NCBI GenBank assembly: GCA_028818385.1
Contig: JAPPNY010000201.1
Coordinates: 1-20,679, forward strand
Direction: 5' to 3'
DNA: 20,679 bases
Origin: Spirochaetaceae bacterium
GTDB taxonomy: Bacteria > Spirochaetota > Spirochaetia > SZUA-6 > Bin103
The notes under the pieces were generated by a model. It was not told the DNA's origin. It did no database searches and worked only from the letters and a program-made list of their open reading frames with translations. The position numbers and the translations under genes are program-made. Shown piece by piece: positions 1,653 through 19,131 of this stretch. How positions within the stretch are numbered: position 1 is the stretch's first letter; each line of letters starts with the position of its first letter.

Positions 1653-1930
1653 TCAGAGACGACTCCCGAACTCTGTCGGCGTCTCGATCGGATGGCGGCT
1701 GCGGAGCGCCAGGAGATCAACGTCACCGGTCACCAGGAGGTCGGCCTTCGCGGCCACCAGCGGCGCCAGCACGGCGGAGTCCTTGGGATCCCGCGGTGTC
1801 TGCGCGCAGCCTTTACGGCCTCATCGGTCAGAGCCTGGACGTCGTGCTCGGTCGCATCGGCGAACGCACGCGCGATCTCGCCCCGCATGCGGTCGAATTC
1901 GGCGTCCAGCTTGCGCAACCGCTCAAACAT
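1653..1930 (-). pseudogene. Remnant of a PIN-domain toxin-antitoxin pair
   Basis: Two reading frames join into one broken gene. The first frame (1930 down to about 1790) begins MFERLRKLDAEFDRMRG and continues to LTDEAVKAARR. This charged helical peptide resembles the small antitoxins found upstream of PIN-family toxins. From about 1790 down to 1653 a different frame reads TPRDPKDSAVLAPL, then ADLLVTGDVDLLAL and ETPTEF, which is the C-terminal half of a PIN ribonuclease with its conserved TGD-DLL motif. The N-terminal part of the PIN domain, with the first catalytic aspartate, is absent. The simplest reading is a deletion that fused the antitoxin to the end of the toxin. The ATG at 1930 overlaps the stop of the methyltransferase gene by 8 bases. 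The first frame alone could still make a 66-residue peptide. The antitoxin identity is by resemblance only; the PIN tail is clearer. Confidence 0.6.
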
Positions 1931-2879
1931 CGTTCATGCGATCGTCCGCGGCTGATCTCGCCCCACTGCCGACGTACCAGCCGCTTCTTTCGAAGAGCAT
2001 CAACTGTTCGTCCGACCTCTCATGCTCCTCCCTGGGCGATGCGCGAACGTGATTCGTGACCAACGCCTCCAGCATCGGCTTTCGGTTCGTCTCGCGTGCA
2101 CCGACATGATAAAAGTGCTCCTGCGTCGAGATCTCGAACGTACCCCAGAGCGTCTGCAGATATACGTTCGTTCGGTACTCGTTGCTGTGCCACGTAGATA
2201 ACATGAACCGGCACGGGTTCTTCCGCAGTCTCTCGTACAGTGACGTCTCCGACTCCTCATCCCAACTGTCATAATAGTCTACGTGGCGGCCGACATACGG
2301 AGGATCACAGTATACGTAGTCACCCTCTCTCACTTCCCCGAGAGTGATCCGGTAGTCCTGGCACGCGAACCGCCAGTCGAACAGCTCCGTGGCCGCTCGG
2401 AAGCACTCGACCTGATTGACGATCTTCGTGATGTAGGCCGGAGCGAACCGCTGCGGCTTGTGTCCGAACGGGACATTGAATCCCCCTCGCTTGTTGAATC
2501 GGATGACTCCGTTGAAACAGGATCGATTAAGGAACAGGAAATCCAGCGGATCCCCACTCGAGTTGAAACGATCGCGCACATGGTAATAGTGGTCTTGCCC
2601 CCGATTCGCCAAGAGATCGCCTTCCCGCTCGAGGTACCTTCTGGTCTTCGATCCATCGACGGCACCGTCCTTGACGGCTTGATAGAACCGGATCAGGTGT
2701 GGATTGCTGTCTGCGAGCAAGGCTCGCCGCGGGGCCACGTTCAGAGCCACCACTCCGGAACCTAGGAAAGGCTCGACCCAGACCCCGGCTGGATCGCGCT
2801 CGATCTCCCGTAGAATGGTGGGTACCAGCTTGGTTTTGATACCTTGGCACTTGATCGGTGGTACCTGGACTCGCATCAT
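1923..2879 (-). CDS. Dam-like adenine-N6 DNA methyltransferase, EcoRV-type modification enzyme
   Basis: This 318-residue protein carries the motifs of the alpha-group (D12 class, Dam-like) adenine methyltransferases. Motif X is at PPIKCQGIKTKL (residues 7-18), the S-adenosylmethionine loop at EPFLGSGVV (36-44), the NRSCFNG segment at 118-124, and the catalytic DPPY motif at 192-195. M.EcoRV belongs to this same class. Together with the neighbouring EcoRV homologue, this supports methylation of adenine in GATATC as the protective activity (inference from the pair). The stop of the endonuclease gene and the ATG overlap as TGATG, so translation is probably coupled; a second ATG lies one codon later and a TTG one codon earlier. 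Base composition is clearly lower in GC (33 of 60 in one line counted) than in the neighbouring genes, which suggests transfer from another genome. The last codons overlap the toxin-antitoxin remnant. Confidence 0.92.
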   Translation of the reverse strand: MMRVQVPPIKCQGIKTKLVPTILREIERDPAGVWVEPFLGSGVVALNVAPRRALLADSNPHLIRFYQAVKDGAVDGSKTRRYLEREGDLLANRGQDHYYHVRDRFNSSGDPLDFLFLNRSCFNGVIRFNKRGGFNVPFGHKPQRFAPAYITKIVNQVECFRAATELFDWRFACQDYRITLGEVREGDYVYCDPPYVGRHVDYYDSWDEESETSLYERLRKNPCRFMLSTWHSNEYRTNVYLQTLWGTFEISTQEHFYHVGARETNRKPMLEALVTNHVRASPREEHERSDEQLMLFERSGWYVGSGARSAADDRMNDV

Positions 2880-3745
2880 CAACTGCTCTTGGAAGGACGT
2901 GTCGCCTTCGGCACCACCTGCGTCGGATCACCGCCACGGTAACTGACGAAGTCCGTCAGTCTTCGGATTGGGCGGGTCTTTCCAGAAGGATCCTTTACCG
3001 TGATCTTCCCGTAGTTCATCCAATAGTCGTCGAACCATTCTTCTCCGAGCACCGAGAACATTCCGTTACCCGCAACGATGTCGTCGATTCTGTTGATGCT
3101 GCCGATGTTCGCCGTATTCCCGCTGCCGCGTTGATCCGAAGCAATCCGCCACTTCTCTTGAACGAAGAACTGAATGTCTCGAATAACTGAAGCGATCGAC
3201 TGAAGATCCTCGATTCGATACGCTCGAGTCTCATCGACGTCCCGGTCGGCGTGACGCGAATAGATGATACCCAAACAATAGTGGCCGGCGTACTCCTTGT
3301 ACGGGAACTGTATGTTCTTCGTGCTGTCTCGATCCGTGAAATACTTGCCGTGTGAGCCGAGCGTGAACCCGTTACAGAACTCAGGGGTCGTTGCCCGCCG
3401 GTATGTCGTCTTGAAGTCGACGGCGAACTTCAGGTCCGAGTTGGCCTTCACAAACGAGATGTCCGGGTAGTAGTTCTGATGATCCGCGAGAACGATTCCG
3501 TACCCTATCTCCTCCGCGAAGGCGAGTAGTCTCGGAAAGAGGTGAATCTCGAGAATCTTCGAGACCACCTTGGTGTCGGACGAGATAGTGTAAATGCTGC
3601 GATACACGTCGATAAAGCCCTTGACCGTCCACTGACCGTCCATGGTCGCAATGTCTGTGCTGAGGTTGTCCGTCAAGCTTCGCAGCGCCTTGAGGAACGA
3701 TACCTTCTCCTGTTCGTCGTTTACCACTGATCCGATCGTGCCCAT
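2879..3745 (-). CDS. Type II restriction endonuclease, EcoRV family (predicted GATATC)
   Basis: This 288-residue protein aligns by eye with EcoRV (245 residues). The SDTKV segment (56-60) matches SDTKV around EcoRV Lys38, and Glu66 matches Glu45. HQNYYPD (89-95) matches the Q-loop and catalytic Asp74. AVDFKTTY (108-115) supplies the Asp90 and Lys92 equivalents as Asp110 and Lys112. KWRIASDQRGSGNTANIGSI (198-217) matches the recognition R-loop, including the Asn185 and Asn188 equivalents. EWFDDYWMNY near 236-245 matches the C-terminal DYWRNY. All catalytic and base-contacting segments I can recall are intact, so blunt cutting at GATATC is expected. An N-terminal extension of about 21 residues and a longer C-terminus account for the extra length. 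The ATG at 3745 has only a weak ribosome site. The gene comes first in a two-gene operon with its methyltransferase; GC is about 52% in a sampled line. Confidence 0.95.
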   Translation of the reverse strand: MGTIGSVVNDEQEKVSFLKALRSLTDNLSTDIATMDGQWTVKGFIDVYRSIYTISSDTKVVSKILEIHLFPRLLAFAEEIGYGIVLADHQNYYPDISFVKANSDLKFAVDFKTTYRRATTPEFCNGFTLGSHGKYFTDRDSTKNIQFPYKEYAGHYCLGIIYSRHADRDVDETRAYRIEDLQSIASVIRDIQFFVQEKWRIASDQRGSGNTANIGSINRIDDIVAGNGMFSVLGEEWFDDYWMNYGKITVKDPSGKTRPIRRLTDFVSYRGGDPTQVVPKATRPSKSS

Positions 3746-3833: not shown

Positions 3834-3893
3834 GTAGCGCGTACTTCGCGCTGACGCTTTCACCCTTACCGCTTGGTGTGCCACAGTGCCGCC

Positions 3894-4748
3894 ATGCGGG
3901 CACACACGACCCTTAGCTTGTTCGAGCCGCTGCAGCGGCTCCTGTTCTACGACGACTTCAACGACGGCGTGAACGGCTGGGGCGCGCTGATCGGCAACTA
4001 CGAGGACCGTGTTGACGCCATGCTGCCGGAGTACATGGACATGCGCCCGCCGATGCTGAGCAACCTGACCACGTGGGACGCGGGCACCTCCGGCGCGATC
4101 GGCGGCGCCTACGCGCTGAAGCTGGCCACGCGCGCCAAGCCCGGCACCTTCTGCACGGCGATCAAGCGCTCCACCTTCCGCACCGCCGGACCGCTGCGCG
4201 TGGAGGCGATCGTCACCTTCAAGCCGGAGGCGAACGAGCTGGAGCTCGGCGAGACGGCGGTGCGCGCGTTCGGAGTCCTGCTCGACCTCCAGCACGCCGA
4301 CGGGCAGGCGGCCGAGCCGCTCCGGGTCATGCCGCACATCCGCTACCTCAACGCCTTCGAGGGCCGGCGAGCCGAGTGCTGGCAGTACAAGAACGAGCGC
4401 GAGCCGCTCCACGACATCGGCACCCGCGGCAAGACCTGGTCGCACTTCCACTTCAAGTCCAGAAACTGGGTCGACGTTCCGGGCGGCGGCCAGCGGCTCT
4501 GCTACAACGAGATCGCCACCAAGCACAACTGGTACTACCTGCGGCTGGACTTCGACCTGGCCGGCATGCGCTTCCTGGGATTCCGCTGCAACGAGCGCGA
4601 CCTGGACGTGGCCGGCATCGAGCCGATGCGGCTGCCGGCGATGCCCAACCTGTGGTCGATGCTGAACGTCGCGTTCTTCGTGGAGAGCGACGCGGCCACG
4701 CGCGCGTTCCTGTACGTGGACAGCGTCGCGGTCTCCACGGCCACGTGA
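3894..4748 (+). CDS. Uncharacterised protein, possibly DUF6772-like
   Basis: This 284-residue protein has no signal peptide, membrane segment or catalytic motif that I recognise. It begins MRAHTTLSLFEPLQRLLFYD and is rich in aromatic residues and short beta-like stretches, for example FYDDFNDGVNGWGALIGNY, MLSNLTTWDAGTSGA, ALKLATR, HNWYYLRLDFDL and MLNVAFFVE. This suggests a beta-sandwich or jelly-roll fold of the kind seen in lectin-like proteins (inference). From memory it resembles a family called DUF6772, but that recall is weak. The start is the ATG at 3894; an in-frame GTG at 3873 is the alternative. GC content and codon use are like the chromosome rather than like the restriction genes beside it. 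It is followed after 13 bases by another unknown gene, with which it likely forms an operon. The function is unknown. Confidence 0.75.
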   Translation: MRAHTTLSLFEPLQRLLFYDDFNDGVNGWGALIGNYEDRVDAMLPEYMDMRPPMLSNLTTWDAGTSGAIGGAYALKLATRAKPGTFCTAIKRSTFRTAGPLRVEAIVTFKPEANELELGETAVRAFGVLLDLQHADGQAAEPLRVMPHIRYLNAFEGRRAECWQYKNEREPLHDIGTRGKTWSHFHFKSRNWVDVPGGGQRLCYNEIATKHNWYYLRLDFDLAGMRFLGFRCNERDLDVAGIEPMRLPAMPNLWSMLNVAFFVESDAATRAFLYVDSVAVSTAT

Positions 4749-7815: not shown

Positions 7816-7837
7816 TGCGGCGCCGTGCGGCGCACAT

Positions 7838-7911
<74 letters not shown>

Positions 7912-7936
7912 GGAAGCTCCCGCAACAGGAGGGGTC

Positions 7937-13576: not shown

Positions 13577-15460
13577 ATGGTAGTCGTTCTGGCACGCGGC
13601 ATCTCCGAGTCGCGCCGGCAGGCAGTCCGCCGCGATCTCCAGGAGCAGGGTTTCACGGTGCGGCAGATCGAGGACGGCGAGCGCACCGTGCTGGCCGCGG
13701 TCGGTCCGCGAGTGACCGATCCCCATGCGTACGAGGCGATCGAAGGGGTCGAGCAGGTGCTGCCGATCTCCAAGCCGTACAAGCTGGCTTCCCGAGAGGT
13801 GCAGCGCGCCGACACGGTGGTGTCGGTGGGCCCCATCCGCATCGGCGGCCAGCGCATCGCCGTGATCGCCGGCCCGTCGGTGGTGGAGAGCCGCGACCAG
13901 ATCATGGAGTGCGCCGCGCTGGTGGCCGAGTCCGGTGCGGTGCTGCTGCGCGGCGCAGCGATCAAGCCGCGCACCTCGCCGTACTCCTTCCAGGGTCTGG
14001 GGCTGGAGGGCCTGCGCTTCCTGCGCGAGGCGGGCGACCGCCACGGGATGCCGGTGGTGTCGGAGGCGTCGTCGCCCGACCACCTGGCGGAGATGGCCGA
14101 GCTGGTCGACGTGCTTCAGATCGGCGCCCGCAACATGCAGAACTTCGACTTGCTGCGGCGGGTGGGCGCCCTCGGCAAGCCGGTTGTGCTCAAGCGCGGC
14201 ATGGGCGCCAGGGTCCGCGACCTGCTCATGTCGGCCGAGTACCTGCTGGCCAACGGCGCCGAGGACGTGATCCTGTGCGAGCGCGGCATCCGCACCTTCG
14301 AGACCGCCACCCGCAGCACGCTGGACCTGTCGGCGGTGCCGGCCGTGCAGGCGCTGTCGCACCTGCCGATCATCGTCGATCCCAGCCTGGGCACCGGCGA
14401 CCGCTCCAGGGTGCCGCCCATGGGGCTGGCCTCGCTGGCTGCCGGCGCACAGGGACTGCTCGTGGAGGTGCACCCCGATCCGGAGCGTGCGCTGTCCGAC
14501 GGGCCGCAGTCGCTGCACCCGGCGCAGTTCGAGAAGCTGATGCGCGACATCGACGGACTGGCCGCCGTGCTGGGCATGGAGGTGGCGCGGTTGCCGCTGG
14601 GAGCGGCCAGGACCGCGACGCCGCGTCCCGCGGGCGACGACGGCGAGCTGCCCAGGGTCGCCTTCCAGGGGGAGATGGGCGCCAACAGCGAGATCGCCAT
14701 CCGCCGCTTCCTGGAACGCGCCGAGCCCGTGCCGTGCCGGGAGTTCCGGGACGTGTTCGAGGCGGTGCTGTCGGGCGCCTGCCGCTACGGCGCCCTGCCG
14801 GTCGAGAACTCGCTGACCGGCACCATTCACCAGAACTTCGAGCTTTTGCTGCAGTTTCCTGACCTGACGATCGTCGCCGAGCGCAACATCCGCATCGTGC
14901 ACAACCTGATCGGCCGGCCGGGCGCGACCATCGACGGCATCAGGCGCGTCTATTCGCACCCGCAGGGACTGGCGCAGTGCCGGCGCTATCTGAGCGAGCA
15001 TGATTGGCAGTCGGTGTCGTTCTACGACACCGCCGGAGCGGTCGCCCACCTGGCCCGCGAAGGACAGATGAGCGACGCCACCATCGCCAGCGAGGAGGCG
15101 GCGCGTACCTACCGGATGCGCGTGCTCAAGCAGGGAATCGAGGACAACCCCCAGAACTACACGCGGTTCCTGCTCATCGCCGCGGCCGACCACCCACCCC
15201 TGGCGCCGGCCGACAAGGCCTCCCTGGTGTTCTCCACCCCGGACCGCCCCGGCGCGCTCTCGGAGTGCCTGACCGTGTTCGCCAAGCACGACCTCAACAT
15301 GACCAAGCTGGAGTCCCGCCCCATCCCCGGACGCCCCTGGGAGTACCGCTTCTACGTCGACGTTGCCCTGGGCGCCGCCGCCGACGCGCTCGGCAACGCC
15401 GAGGCGGAGCTGCGCGATCTCACCGCGAGCTACCGCATCCTGGGCGTCTACAGCTCGTAG
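13577..15460 (+). CDS. Fusion of type I-beta DAHP synthase, prephenate dehydratase and ACT domain
   Basis: This 627-residue protein joins the first step of aromatic amino acid synthesis to the phenylalanine-committing step. Residues 1-65 are a ferredoxin-like regulatory domain. Residues 66-340 are a DAHP synthase barrel with KPRTSPYSFQG (130-140), LQIGARNMQNF (180-190), VLKRGM (204-209) and ERGIRTFET (235-243). Residues 358-533 are prephenate dehydratase with GALPVENSLTGTI (405-417), YSHPQGLAQC (459-468), DTAGAV and NYTRF (527-531). Residues 546-627 are an ACT domain with RPGALSE and ESRP, the phenylalanine-sensing motifs. Two of the four expected metal ligands are changed: Ser101 stands where GPC has Cys, and Leu271 where DPSH has His. 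Glu297 and Asp308 remain. The barrel may be inactive, altered or regulatory. The ATG at 13577 opens the protein exactly at the conserved N-terminal strand. Confidence 0.93.
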   Translation: MVVVLARGISESRRQAVRRDLQEQGFTVRQIEDGERTVLAAVGPRVTDPHAYEAIEGVEQVLPISKPYKLASREVQRADTVVSVGPIRIGGQRIAVIAGPSVVESRDQIMECAALVAESGAVLLRGAAIKPRTSPYSFQGLGLEGLRFLREAGDRHGMPVVSEASSPDHLAEMAELVDVLQIGARNMQNFDLLRRVGALGKPVVLKRGMGARVRDLLMSAEYLLANGAEDVILCERGIRTFETATRSTLDLSAVPAVQALSHLPIIVDPSLGTGDRSRVPPMGLASLAAGAQGLLVEVHPDPERALSDGPQSLHPAQFEKLMRDIDGLAAVLGMEVARLPLGAARTATPRPAGDDGELPRVAFQGEMGANSEIAIRRFLERAEPVPCREFRDVFEAVLSGACRYGALPVENSLTGTIHQNFELLLQFPDLTIVAERNIRIVHNLIGRPGATIDGIRRVYSHPQGLAQCRRYLSEHDWQSVSFYDTAGAVAHLAREGQMSDATIASEEAARTYRMRVLKQGIEDNPQNYTRFLLIAAADHPPLAPADKASLVFSTPDRPGALSECLTVFAKHDLNMTKLESRPIPGRPWEYRFYVDVALGAAADALGNAEAELRDLTASYRILGVYSS

Positions 15461-15480: not shown

Positions 15481-15647
15481 TGGCGAAGCTCCTCCTGGGG
15501 CTCACGGACGACCGAGAGCCGCAGTCACTCACCTCGGCGCAACCCGATCTGTTGGCGGATCGCGTGACGGCAAGAGCGGACCAATCCGGTCCTCGTCTTG
15601 CTCTCCGGCCAGCAACCTGCCGAGGTTCAGACGGAGCAGATACGTGA
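15481..15647 (+). CDS. Possible 55-codon leader reading frame before mcrB
   Basis: An ATG at 15481, with GAGGTGG about 11 bases upstream, opens a frame starting MAKLLLGLTDDREPQSL. It ends at a TGA that overlaps the mcrB GTG as GTGA, the classic coupling overlap. The peptide resembles nothing I know and could be chance in GC-rich DNA. It may also be the end of a decayed gene. The 183-base gap between the fusion gene and mcrB holds no other gene. Confidence 0.2.
15571..15600. repeat. Imperfect inverted repeat upstream of mcrB
   Basis: The outer arms CAAGA (15571-15575) and TCTTG (15596-15600) and the inner arms GGACC (15578-15582) and GGTCC (15588-15592) form a 30-base hairpin with a small internal loop and an AATCC tip. 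It lies 110 bases after the fusion gene stop and 44 bases before the mcrB start. It has no T-run, so it is a poor intrinsic terminator; an operator or messenger structure is equally possible. Confidence 0.35.
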
Positions 15648-17809
15648 AGGAAATCCACCACTGGGCAGGCTGGTTCCGAGAACTTGGAAGGGCGATTCGG
15701 GGTGCCGGCGAAGACGGATTGGCCACACAGGCGAGCCAAGTGGACTGGGGCGGCAAGCCCGAACTGCTCAAGAACGGTGATCCGGGGATCGATCCGTTTT
15801 CGTTCCTCTACTCCCTGGCTCAGAAGAACACCAAGCGCCAGCGACCAAGAGTCTATCCGAGTGTCGCGAAGTGCTTCGGGCTGGAGGCGCCCCCGGATCC
15901 CGGCAACGATGATCTCTACACGTTTCCCACGCCGACCCCGGTGGCTTCGGCCGTGTTCAACGACAGAAGCGAGTTCAGGCCCGACCTGCTGTGGCGTCTG
16001 TTCCGGCAGGCGGTCGAGAACGAGCCGCGAATCGATCCGGAGCTGTTTCGGGATGTTCTGGAGATCAAGTTTGTCGCGATCGTGAAGCTGACGCATACGC
16101 TATGCCTCATCAACCCTGATTACTTCATTCCTGCCGATACGCTGGAACGCCTGCCCGCGAATGAGGGCGCGGACCTGAAGCGCTGGGGTCATGCAGAGTA
16201 CGTGTCGGCCATGGACAAGGCCAAGCGGACCTTCCCCGAATGCCGGGCGTACGAGATCAACGCGTTCGTGTGGTTCCAGTACATGTCGGGGTCTCCGCTG
16301 ATCACGGCTGAGTCCCGGTACTTCCAAGTCAGCACACGAGCCTACGAGGGCGACCGCTGGACAGACTTCGAGCGGAGTTGCGCCGTGTACACGGACGCAA
16401 TCAGACCAGGAGGCCCCGTTGGTTCGTGGAGCGACCCTTCGCGCGACCCGTATCCTCTCGCGGAGCCCAGTCGGGGAGACGTCATCCTGGTCCGCACCGG
16501 GTTCAAGGGCCGGGCGATCGGCGTCGTTCACAGCAACGACTACGCCGAACCCGGCGGACTGAATGAACGCAGCAGACTCCATGTGTACTGGATCAACAAG
16601 GCCTCGGCCAGCTTCGCCGCCCAGACGGACCAGAGGGCCTTCGCACGCACCCAGCCGGGGAGTTCCACGCACAGCGCGTTTGCGACGGCGGCTTCGTACG
16701 AACCGACGTTCGCACTGCTCGGCAAGGGGGGGCCATCGAAGAAGCCTCGCCTCCACCCCCTGAATCTGGTCCTCTATGGGCCACCCGGCACCGGGAAGAC
16801 GTGGCACACCGTCACCCGTGCGGTGGCGATTGTCGAAGGCCGGAGCGTCCACGATGTGTCCGAGGAGGGGCGGGAAGACCGCGCCGCCATCAAGCGCCGG
16901 TTCAACGAATACCGGCATACGATGAACCGGATCGAGATGGTGACGTTCCACCAGAACACCACCTACGAGGATTTCGTCGAGGGCATCCGGCCCGTGCTGG
17001 TGGACGATGCGAGCGCCAGCGCGGACAGCCAAGCCGAGCCGCACAACGTCGGAGATGTCCGATACGAGCTGTCTCGCGGCGTTTTCAGACGGATTACCGA
17101 GCGCGCCGAGCAGGACCCGGACCAGCGTTACGTGCTCGTCATCGACGAGATCAACCGTGGCAACATCGCCCGGATCTTCGGCGAGCTGATCACCCTGATC
17201 GAGGACTCGAAGCGGACCGGCCGCGAAGATGAGACACGGGTGACGCTGCCCGGCTCGAAGACAGAGTTCGGCGTGCCGGCGAACCTGCACGTCGTCGGGA
17301 CGATGAACACGGCGGACCGGTCCATCGCCCTTCTGGACACCGCGTTACGGCGGCGTTTCGTGTTCGAGGAGATGATGCCGGATGCGTCTCATCCTGGCAT
17401 CAGCACCGACGCAGACGGCGTCGATTGTCGCGAGCTGCTCGCCGCGATGAATCGACGCATCGCCGTCTTATTGGATCGCGAGCACCAGATCGGGCACACC
17501 TACTTGCTGGGTGTCGACACACTGGCGGCGCTCGCCAGCACGTTTCGGACCCAAATCCTGCCACTGCTGCAAGAGTACTTCTACGACGACTGGGAGAAGA
17601 TTCGCGCGGTTCTGAACGACAACGGGTTCGTCCGGAAGTCGGATCTGCCCGAGGAGCTGGTAAGAGCGGAGCTGGTGGATGCGGACCAAGCCGTGTACGA
17701 CCTACCCCCTGCCGCTGACGGCCCGTGGACCGCCGTGACCGCGTATCAGGCGATCTACGAACCGAAGACGTCAACAGAAGATAGTAGTAACGCGGCACCG
17801 GACGCCTGA
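15644..17809 (+). CDS. mcrB: McrB-family AAA+ GTPase of an McrBC restriction system
   Basis: This 721-residue motor subunit acts in modification-dependent restriction. The AAA+ core (about residues 370-640) has Walker A GPPGTGKT (379-386), the McrB hallmark TFHQNTTYEDFVEGIRP (434-450), Walker B VLVIDEINRGNIARIFGEL (497-515), MNTADRS (554-560, the GTP-related signature and sensor) and the arginine segment DTALRRRF (565-572). The N-terminal 360 residues are target-recognition sequence. A helical region WFRELGRAI to CLINPDYF covers about 8-161. A second segment around 276-318 (SRGDVILVRTGFKGRAIGVV, then RLHVYWINKA) has the look of a PUA-like EVE or related modified-base reader. The GTG at 15644 has GGAG seven bases upstream (15633-15636). 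mcrC follows after 2 bases. E. coli McrB has 459 residues, so this one has a much longer N-terminus. Confidence 0.92.
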   Translation: MKEIHHWAGWFRELGRAIRGAGEDGLATQASQVDWGGKPELLKNGDPGIDPFSFLYSLAQKNTKRQRPRVYPSVAKCFGLEAPPDPGNDDLYTFPTPTPVASAVFNDRSEFRPDLLWRLFRQAVENEPRIDPELFRDVLEIKFVAIVKLTHTLCLINPDYFIPADTLERLPANEGADLKRWGHAEYVSAMDKAKRTFPECRAYEINAFVWFQYMSGSPLITAESRYFQVSTRAYEGDRWTDFERSCAVYTDAIRPGGPVGSWSDPSRDPYPLAEPSRGDVILVRTGFKGRAIGVVHSNDYAEPGGLNERSRLHVYWINKASASFAAQTDQRAFARTQPGSSTHSAFATAASYEPTFALLGKGGPSKKPRLHPLNLVLYGPPGTGKTWHTVTRAVAIVEGRSVHDVSEEGREDRAAIKRRFNEYRHTMNRIEMVTFHQNTTYEDFVEGIRPVLVDDASASADSQAEPHNVGDVRYELSRGVFRRITERAEQDPDQRYVLVIDEINRGNIARIFGELITLIEDSKRTGREDETRVTLPGSKTEFGVPANLHVVGTMNTADRSIALLDTALRRRFVFEEMMPDASHPGISTDADGVDCRELLAAMNRRIAVLLDREHQIGHTYLLGVDTLAALASTFRTQILPLLQEYFYDDWEKIRAVLNDNGFVRKSDLPEELVRAELVDADQAVYDLPPAADGPWTAVTAYQAIYEPKTSTEDSSNAAPDA

Positions 17810-17811
17810 CC

Positions 17812-19131
17812 ATGCCGACTCCGCGCGTGCTTGTAGTTCGAGAGCACGAGCCGCTGACCGGATTGCGTGAGGATGAACGGCGTGATCTGGAGAGATTCGC
17901 GCTCGCACGGTCGACCGACGAACGGGGCAGGCGCTGGCCCGTTCTCTCGCTACGGAACGGTCGCCTCCACGCGCAGAACTACGTCGGAATCATCGAAACG
18001 CGCCGGGGAACCGTGATCGAGATCCTCCCGAAGGTCGGTCTCTCGGACGACGGGGACGGCGCGACGACGATCAGCGGCCACGCTGGCGAGCCGACGGAAC
18101 GCCCTCCTGGTTCCATATCAAGTAGGGACGAAGACACCCGGCGGGTCTTCCTCACGATGCTGCGCGACTGGCGCGGTCTCGGGCAGGCACAGCTTGACGG
18201 TGCCAGCATCCGCGCGATCCGGCGCTTCGACATGTTCGAAGCGCTCGTCCATCTGTTCCTGGTGAGCGTCGTCCTGCTGACCCGTCGTGGCCTCGCCCGG
18301 GCGTACCGGACACAGGAGGCGAATCTCCCCTGCCTGCGGGGCCGGATCTTGTTCTCGCCGCACGTTCGCGAGAATCTGGTCGACCGCTCCAGGTTCTACG
18401 TCGGCTACGACGAGTTCACGGCGGACCGACCCGCCAACCGCCTGATACACAGCGCGTTACGACGGCTCGCGGGTATCGTTCGCCATCCCGAGAACCGGCA
18501 GCGCGTCCATCAGTTGCGCATCGTTTTCTCCGATGTGCCCTTGTCGACGAACCTGGACGACGACTGGGCACGGCGCCGCGTGGACCGTTCGATGCGGCAC
18601 TACGACACCGTGATGCCGTGGGTCGGGTTGTTCCTGTTCGGCCACGGTCTCGCCACGTTCGCCGGGCCGCACGTCAATCGTGCGCTGCTGTTCCCGATGG
18701 AGGAGGTGTTCGAGGATTTCGTCACCGCCGCGGTCCGTCGACACCAGCGACGCTTCACGGTGCGTGCCCAAGGGCCGATGTGGCAACTGGCGACGGACGT
18801 CGCTGGCAAGGACGCGTTTCGGTTGAAGCCCGATGTCGTCTTGTTCGATCGCAAGCGAGTCCGATTCATCCTGGATGCGAAGTGGAAGCCACTCGACCTC
18901 GTCGCGCCGAACCGCGGCGTCAGCCAGGACGACGCGTATCAGCTCTTCGCCTACGGGAAGAGATACGGCTGCCGGCGTGTGGTACTGGTCTATCCGAGGA
19001 CGAAAGCGTTTCGCGAGACGCTCCTCTTCCGATTCGCCGATGGCGGCGATCTGGAGATGGCGTGCTTTCCGTTCAACGTGGCCGATCCGGCGGGAACCGT
19101 TGGCGCGTTGATGCGGGAACTGACCTCGTAG
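17812..19131 (+). CDS. mcrC: McrC-family PD-(D/E)xK nuclease subunit
   Basis: This 439-residue protein is the cleavage subunit partner of McrB. The N-terminal half (LHAQNYVGIIET, VIEILPKVG) is the beta-rich McrB-contacting region that stimulates GTP hydrolysis in known systems. FDMFEALVHLF and LRGRILF lie near 139-180. The nuclease core is at the C-terminus: FPMEEVFEDFV (294-304), LKPDVVLF with Asp341, FILDAKWKPLD with Asp355 and Lys357, and DAYQLFAYGKRYG with Gln377. This is a complete PD-(D/E)xK active site. The ATG at 17812 lies 2 bases after the mcrB stop, so the two are certainly co-transcribed. Its length is somewhat more than E. coli McrC (348). A linker of low complexity at about 78-105 (SDDGDGATTISGHAGEP) accounts for part of the difference. 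Confidence 0.93.
   Translation: MPTPRVLVVREHEPLTGLREDERRDLERFALARSTDERGRRWPVLSLRNGRLHAQNYVGIIETRRGTVIEILPKVGLSDDGDGATTISGHAGEPTERPPGSISSRDEDTRRVFLTMLRDWRGLGQAQLDGASIRAIRRFDMFEALVHLFLVSVVLLTRRGLARAYRTQEANLPCLRGRILFSPHVRENLVDRSRFYVGYDEFTADRPANRLIHSALRRLAGIVRHPENRQRVHQLRIVFSDVPLSTNLDDDWARRRVDRSMRHYDTVMPWVGLFLFGHGLATFAGPHVNRALLFPMEEVFEDFVTAAVRRHQRRFTVRAQGPMWQLATDVAGKDAFRLKPDVVLFDRKRVRFILDAKWKPLDLVAPNRGVSQDDAYQLFAYGKRYGCRRVVLVYPRTKAFRETLLFRFADGGDLEMACFPFNVADPAGTVGALMRELTS

What the first reader, a model, noticed from the sequence alone, without database searches (positions are those of the whole stretch)
13577..15460. DAHP synthase domain has lost two of four metal ligands
In type I-beta DAHP synthase the metal is held by Cys, His, Glu and Asp; from memory these are Cys102, His272, Glu298 and Asp309 in the Thermotoga maritima enzyme. 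This protein keeps the numbering with an offset of one. It shows Ser101 in GPSVVES (normally GPC) and Leu271 in DPSLGTG (normally DPSH), while Glu297 and Asp308 remain. The substrate-binding segments KPRTSPY, LKRGM and ERGIRTFE are intact. The codons are TCG and CTG, so neither change is one ambiguous base away from an obvious error at both sites. The domain may be a catalytically dead regulatory or scaffolding module for the dehydratase, or use a different metal arrangement.
Basis: partly seen in the sequence, partly recalled or inferred. Interest (0 to 1): 0.7.

Follow-up and report, generated by a model that had tools for sequence, protein, structure and literature searches.

The report
Aromatic-pathway enzyme without its metal site
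A spirochaete's two-in-one enzyme for making phenylalanine has lost half of the metal-holding residues in its first half, and close relatives share the loss, so that half has probably stopped making its usual product or, less likely, works without metal.

Summary
The gene at 13577-15460 (+) is a spirochaete fusion of type I-beta DAHP synthase (DAHPS) with prephenate dehydratase (PDT). Two of four metal ligands are replaced (Cys101Ser, His271Leu); Glu297, Asp308 and the other mapped PEP/E4P residues remain. It is no sequencing error: nine protein clusters share Ser/Leu. A sister clade has Ser/Gln and has lost Lys, Arg and Thr of the KPRT loop; P0018 has lost 7 of 9 mapped substrate residues; P0016, 83% identical, keeps all four ligands. 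PDT scores as intact. Relative to PDT the DAHPS domain sped up about sevenfold on the loss branches, then slowed. Best reading: the DAHPS half lost metal-dependent catalysis and is kept as a structural or ligand-sensing partner of PDT. Against it: in the only related whole genome found (sister clade) the later shikimate genes are present but no other DAHPS, and substrate motifs do not vary within the window's clade (0 of 26; other near-invariant sites 3 of 93). A natural metal-independent DAHPS is not excluded; I found none in the papers searched. Nothing was assayed.

The parts
13577..15460 (+). DAHPS(I-beta)-prephenate dehydratase fusion gene, 627 aa
13577..13774 (+). N-terminal ferredoxin-like (FXD) domain, aa 1-66; fast-evolving here
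   Evidence: PF18152; dN/dS 0.65 against L001
13784..14581 (+). type I-beta DAHP synthase barrel, aa 70-335
13877..13879 (+). codon 101 TCG = Ser in place of the metal ligand Cys
13964..13978 (+). KPRTS, aa 130-134: PEP/E4P-binding motif, intact
14387..14389 (+). codon 271 CTG = Leu in place of the metal ligand His
14399..14401 (+). Asp275: acidic residue peculiar to this clade among the 120 listed homologues, four residues after the lost His
   Evidence: acid in A 10/10 (window included), B 7/8, P0016 and P0018; 0 of 101 others
14465..14467 (+). Glu297, metal ligand kept
14498..14500 (+). Asp308, metal ligand kept
14657..15187 (+). prephenate dehydratase domain, aa 361-537
   Evidence: PF00800 E 2.7e-56; 4 of 48 near-invariant PDT sites changed, as in P0016
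15221..15364 (+). ACT domain, aa 549-596
   Evidence: PF01842
12913..13461 (-). divergent HD-domain phosphohydrolase-like gene, between the fusion gene and pheS-pheT
   Evidence: PF01966; pheS, pheT and nadE next to the fusion gene also in L001

Best explanation
The DAHPS half is a domain-level pseudoenzyme. In one spirochaete lineage the fused I-beta DAHPS lost its metal-binding Cys and His, and with them ordinary metal-dependent DAHP synthesis, while PDT stayed active. In the window's clade the barrel with its PEP/E4P pocket has been kept, I infer as the oligomer core and perhaps as a PEP/E4P sensor that tunes PDT. In sister lineages more of the pocket is gone. Shown: ligand loss, its sharing and grading, the rate shift in DAHPS and FXD relative to PDT, and PDT conservation. 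Inferred: loss of catalysis, PDT activity, the sensing or scaffold role, and another source of DAHP.
For: Two of four ligands are gone in clade A (the window, P0001-P0008, P0030). Clade B (8 proteins) has Ser101, Gln271 and Lys130Thr, Arg132Tyr, Thr133Gly, plus Asp308Asn in five and Glu297Gln in one. P0018 has 46 of 120 near-invariant DAHPS sites changed, against 4 of 48 in PDT (outgroup control there: mean 0.66, most 6 in DAHPS; mean 0.24, most 3 in PDT). The DAHPS/PDT+ACT rate ratio is 0.34 (5-95% 0.27-0.42) in outgroups and 0.36 (0.21-0.53) on the stem before the P0016 split, but 2.36 (1.58-4.80) on the loss branches and 3.55 (2.51-5.06) in P0018. FXD, the feedback domain (recalled role), goes from 0.74 in outgroups to 3.32 on the loss branches. 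Window against L001 dN/dS: FXD 0.65, DAHPS 0.32, PDT 0.15; five neighbour genes 0.13-0.22. Of 41 related genomes I count 36 with the fusion, and 33 of these have another PF00793 or PF01474 match, which could make the fused DAHPS dispensable (hand count; not each match was classed as DAHPS).
Against: Within clade A 0 of 26 substrate-motif sites and 0 of 4 ligand sites vary, while 35 of 143 less conserved DAHPS sites do: no drift of the pocket. This is weak evidence for binding, as the other near-invariant sites hardly vary either (3 of 93). The crown ratios fall back to 0.70 and 0.81. G001, the only related whole genome found (5 contigs, 4.05 Mb, 47 tRNA genes), has aroB, aroDE, aroK, aroA and aroC but no second PF00793, no PF01474 and no archaeal-type PF01959, so no other DAHP source was found. 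P0016, with intact ligands, also has a raised DAHPS/PDT ratio (1.67, 5-95% 0.74-5.86), and FXD was already faster on the stem before P0016 (1.68, 1.00-2.96), so the loosening is not tied strictly to the ligand loss. DAHPS dN (0.104) is only a little above that of the neighbours (0.065-0.093); part of its higher dN/dS comes from a lower dS.
Confidence: 0.6

Rival explanations
1. The domain is a working DAHPS that needs no metal (or holds one differently, with Glu297, Asp308 and perhaps Asp275), a parallel to metal-independent KDO8P synthase.
For: The nine mapped PEP/E4P residues are kept in all of clade A. Asp275 is an acid only in this clade among the 120 listed homologues. G001 has the later shikimate genes and no other DAHPS found. 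In KDO8PS the same four-ligand site has become metal-free in nature (PMC3052366, passages read).
Against: KDO8PS swaps Cys for Asn (PMC3052366); here it is Ser, and His, a PEP contact, is lost as well. Clade B has also lost Lys130, Arg132 and Thr133, and P0018 seven of nine mapped residues. All reported DAHPSs are metalloenzymes according to PMC6362186 (passages). Asp275 is also present in P0016, which keeps Cys and His, so it need not be a substitute.
Confidence: 0.2
2. Neofunctionalisation: the barrel still binds PEP but joins it to another aldehyde or binds another ligand, after a burst of change followed by new constraint.
For: Burst on the stems, then slower crowns. In clade B the changed loop TPYGS is the same in 8 of 8 proteins.
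Against: No biosynthetic cluster was seen around the gene; its neighbours are pheST, nadE, prp and restriction genes. In P0018 most PEP residues are gone.
Confidence: 0.1
3. Plain decay: a relic on its way out, kept only because it is fused to PDT.
For: P0018 shows that the domain can decay while PDT stays. FXD dN/dS is 0.65.
Against: DAHPS dN/dS is 0.32 between the window and L001, and near-invariant sites hold within the clade A and B crowns (3 and 4 of 93 vary).
Confidence: 0.1

Closest known systems
Type I-beta DAHP synthase with FXD domain (Thermotoga maritima, 1rzm)
   Different: Cys and His ligands replaced by Ser and Leu; fused to PDT
Spirochaete DAHPS-PDT fusions with intact ligands (P0016, P0019 and others)
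   Same: Same architecture, 56-83% identity
   Different: They keep Cys/His/Glu/Asp (P0071 has Ser and His)
Metal-independent KDO8P synthase (Neisseria meningitidis, 2qkf)
   Different: Asn, not Ser, replaces Cys (PMC3052366); that they keep His is recalled; different aldehyde substrate

Membership tests
Type I-beta DAHP synthase | Sequence family score (TIGR01361, NF006421) | tested here: met
   347.9 and 429.5 bits, over the cut-offs 267.75 and 335
Type I-beta DAHP synthase | Four metal ligands Cys/His/Glu/Asp | tested here: not met
   Ser101 and Leu271
Type I-beta DAHP synthase | PEP and E4P residues (R125, K130, R132, T133, G183, A184, R185, K206, R236) | tested here: met
   His271, also a PEP contact in the paper, is counted under the ligands
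Type I-beta DAHP synthase | Makes DAHP in a metal-dependent way | not testable with these tools
   needs an assay
Metal-independent KDO8PS-like class | Asn in place of the Cys ligand | tested here: not met
   Ser at 101
Prephenate dehydratase | PDT plus ACT domains with conserved sites | tested here: met
   PF00800 and PF01842 over cut-off; 44 of 48 near-invariant PDT sites kept. The NCBIfam equivalogs PRK11898 (211.7 of 219) and PRK11899 (231.4 of 359) fall below their whole-protein cut-offs
Pseudoenzyme | Loss of catalysis with the fold kept | tested here: inconclusive
   Ligands lost and barrel modelled intact; activity untested

The most novel reading that the evidence does not exclude
A natural DAHP synthase that works without its metal site, with Ser/Leu in place of Cys/His, and that is the only entry to the shikimate pathway in its lineage.
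Probability: 0.18. Interest if true: 0.85.

Novelty: new variant of a known kind. Interest (0 to 1): 0.55.

Why it matters
PMC6362186 finds only the metal-binding sites totally conserved in its DAHPS alignment and calls all reported DAHPSs metalloenzymes. Here a lineage shows graded loss (metal ligands; then the KPRT loop as well; then most substrate residues) inside a bifunctional enzyme whose other half stays intact. If the protein is active, it is a metal-free entry to the shikimate pathway, of interest because the E. coli iron-loaded enzyme is sensitive to superoxide and peroxide (PMC9936198, passages). If it is inactive, it is a clear series for how an enzyme half becomes something else. 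One assay separates the two.

Tried and rejected
Sequencing error: rejected, as nine clusters share the change. Frameshift or pseudogene: rejected, as the ORF is open and the domains score.

Second DAHPS in the window's own genome: no genome is held, so this could not be tested. Linking a second DAHPS to the clade's large contigs through contig lengths in the protein search: among contigs over 200 kb no listed I-alpha protein shares a longest-contig length with a fusion protein, but that was so for the sister group as well (compared by eye), so the check tells nothing. Synteny test for a lost aroF in G001: in G008 and G009 an I-alpha DAHPS gene lies between two genes that I take for serS and a guaB-like gene (named from sequence, no family search). 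Neither turned up in the roughly 2.4 of 4.05 Mb of G001 read. This is left open, because serS must lie in the unread part or be missing from the assembly.

Structure: the model (mean pLDDT 82.5, pTM 0.50) confirms the barrel. No coordinates were at hand, so the pocket geometry and Asp275 were not measured. The rows of the fold search span mostly residues 67-341.

Papers: DAHPS with pseudoenzyme, with metal-independent, with a PDT fusion in spirochetes, and with metal-ligand mutants were searched. None describes a DAHPS lacking these ligands in what I saw: listings; passages of PMC3052366 and PMC9936198 (there 'metal-independent' refers to a ribonucleotide reductase); passages and one section of PMC6362186; and a term search of PMC11656744 without hits. 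Subscription journals are mostly not in that library. A sponge-symbiont origin was considered because of a listing; nothing here shows it.

Full report
What is there. The gene at 13577-15460 (+) encodes 627 aa with a ferredoxin-like domain, a type I-beta DAHP synthase barrel, prephenate dehydratase and an ACT domain. Residue 101 is Ser (TCG) and residue 271 is Leu (CTG), while Glu297 and Asp308 remain. In T. maritima DAHPS (1rzm) the aligned residues are Cys and His. The I-beta enzyme of PMC6362186 names its metal residues C36, H206, E232 and D243 and its PEP and E4P residues (section 23). With an offset of 65 these map onto the window protein, which keeps nine of them (R125, K130, R132, T133, G183, A184, R185, K206, R236). 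The paper also counts the ligand His among the non-bonded PEP contacts, and that one is lost.

Who shares it. The protein search listed the best 120 homologues. Ser+Leu is found in P0001-P0008 and P0030 (with the window: clade A, 89-99% identical; P0030 is a shorter protein with 66% of the query covered). Eight proteins at 82-83% (clade B: P0009-P0015, P0017) have Ser101 and Gln271; five of them have Asn308 and one has Gln297. Clade B has TPYGS in place of KPRTS in 8 of 8. P0018 (68%) has Ala101 and Leu271 and has lost K130, R132, T133, G183, R185, K206 and R236, seven of the nine mapped substrate residues; it keeps R125, A184, Glu297 and Asp308. P0016 (83%) keeps all four ligands. The other 101 have Cys in 100 (P0071 has Ser), His in 101, Glu in 101 and Asp in 101. 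A later search from P0018 added P0121, a partial protein with Leu271 that does not reach residue 101.

How it evolved. In a tree of 33 of these proteins P0016 branches first, then P0018, then A and B (ultrafast bootstrap 95-97 on these nodes). With the topology fixed and sites resampled 100 times, the DAHPS/PDT+ACT branch-length ratio is 0.34 (5-95% 0.27-0.42) in the outgroups and 0.36 (0.21-0.53) on the stem before P0016. It is 2.36 (1.58-4.80) on the loss branches, 3.55 (2.51-5.06) in P0018, 0.70 (0.43-1.17) in the A crown, 0.81 (0.54-1.36) in the B crown and 1.67 (0.74-5.86) in P0016. So the DAHPS half changed about seven times faster relative to PDT when the ligands went, and then settled. 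The P0016 value, and an FXD ratio of 1.68 (1.00-2.96) already on the stem before P0016 against 0.74 in the outgroups, mean that the loosening may have begun before the ligands were lost. Between the window and L001, dN/dS is 0.65 for FXD, 0.32 for DAHPS, 0.15 for PDT and 0.18 for ACT; nadE, pheT, pheS, prpC and prpB lie at 0.13-0.22. DAHPS dN itself (0.104) is not far above theirs (0.065-0.093). Of 120 near-invariant DAHPS sites (97% or more in the 101 others), 8-10 are changed in A, 13-15 in B, 4 in P0016 and 46 in P0018; single outgroup proteins have 0.66 on average and 6 at most. Of 48 in PDT, 4 are changed in each clade member apart from the truncated P0030 (outgroup mean 0.24, most 3). 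As P0016 shares three of the four PDT changes, these mostly predate the ligand loss.

What speaks against simple decay. Within clade A no ligand and no substrate-motif site varies (0 of 4, 0 of 26), while 35 of 143 less conserved DAHPS sites do; other near-invariant sites vary at 3 of 93, so the pocket is not set apart from the conserved core. Within clade B 0 of 26 motif sites and 4 of 93 other near-invariant sites vary, but 2 of 4 ligand sites do. The clade also carries an acidic residue at 275, four residues after the lost His: in A 10/10, B 7/8, P0016 and P0018, and in 0 of 101 others. Whether it replaces a ligand is unknown; its presence in P0016 shows that it came before the loss.

Where the DAHP comes from. 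No whole genome is held for the window. The nearest whole genome found, G001 (locus L001, clade B), has 5 contigs that sum to 4,054,384 bases and 47 tRNA genes; 30 tRNA loci read with ARAGORN gave 19 of 20 amino-acid types, all but Gln. It has aroB (274.3 bits, below the cut-off of 305 in TIGR01357), aroA and aroC, an aroD-aroE fusion and a shikimate kinase. It has one PF00793 match, the fused one, no PF01474 and no PF01959. In a set of 41 related genomes I count 36 with the fusion (G010 by the length of its reading frame only); 33 of these have another PF00793 or PF01474 match (G017 only as two fragments), G001 and G032 have none, and G010 has only a small fragment (hand count). PF00793 also covers KDO8P synthase and not each match was classed; those compared with the I-alpha protein of G009 are 53-94% identical to it. 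So either the G001 assembly lacks the gene, or DAHP reaches the pathway in an unknown way, or the altered domain still works. The completeness of G001 is not told by the tool, and my attempt to settle this by synteny did not finish.

Reading. I hold the pseudoenzyme reading at 0.6: loss of the Cys and His ligands, further loss of substrate residues in sister lineages, and acceleration of FXD and DAHPS relative to PDT all point to lost catalysis with PDT kept. The unvarying pocket in clade A would fit a domain that still binds PEP or E4P as a signal to PDT; this is inference. A metal-free DAHPS is held at about 0.2. Natural metal-free KDO8P synthases show that this barrel can do without metal (PMC3052366), but they use Asn, and Ser with Leu has no precedent in the papers I searched.

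Limits. No activity, metal content or binding was measured. The model confirms the fold and says nothing on ligand geometry. Clade A is known here from protein records and this window only.

Noticed in passing
1923-3745: Type II methyltransferase and restriction enzyme pair on the - strand (PADLOC 423 and 139.3 bits).
   Followed up: partly
15644-19131: AAA ATPase gene with a weak restriction-enzyme match (61.3 bits), followed by a second gene without a PADLOC match, directly downstream of the fusion gene; they look McrB/McrC-like (recalled). In L001 other genes follow.
   Followed up: partly
3873-4748: DUF6772 protein (PF20562, E 2.4e-110).
   Followed up: no
7837-7912: tRNA-Arg (cct) just upstream of nadE.
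   Followed up: no
L140 (start of G001 contig C1): Contig C1 of G001 (1.08 Mb) bears 1 of the 47 tRNA genes; it may be a second replicon or foreign.
   Followed up: no
P0071: A fusion outside the clade with Ser101 but His271 kept.
   Followed up: no
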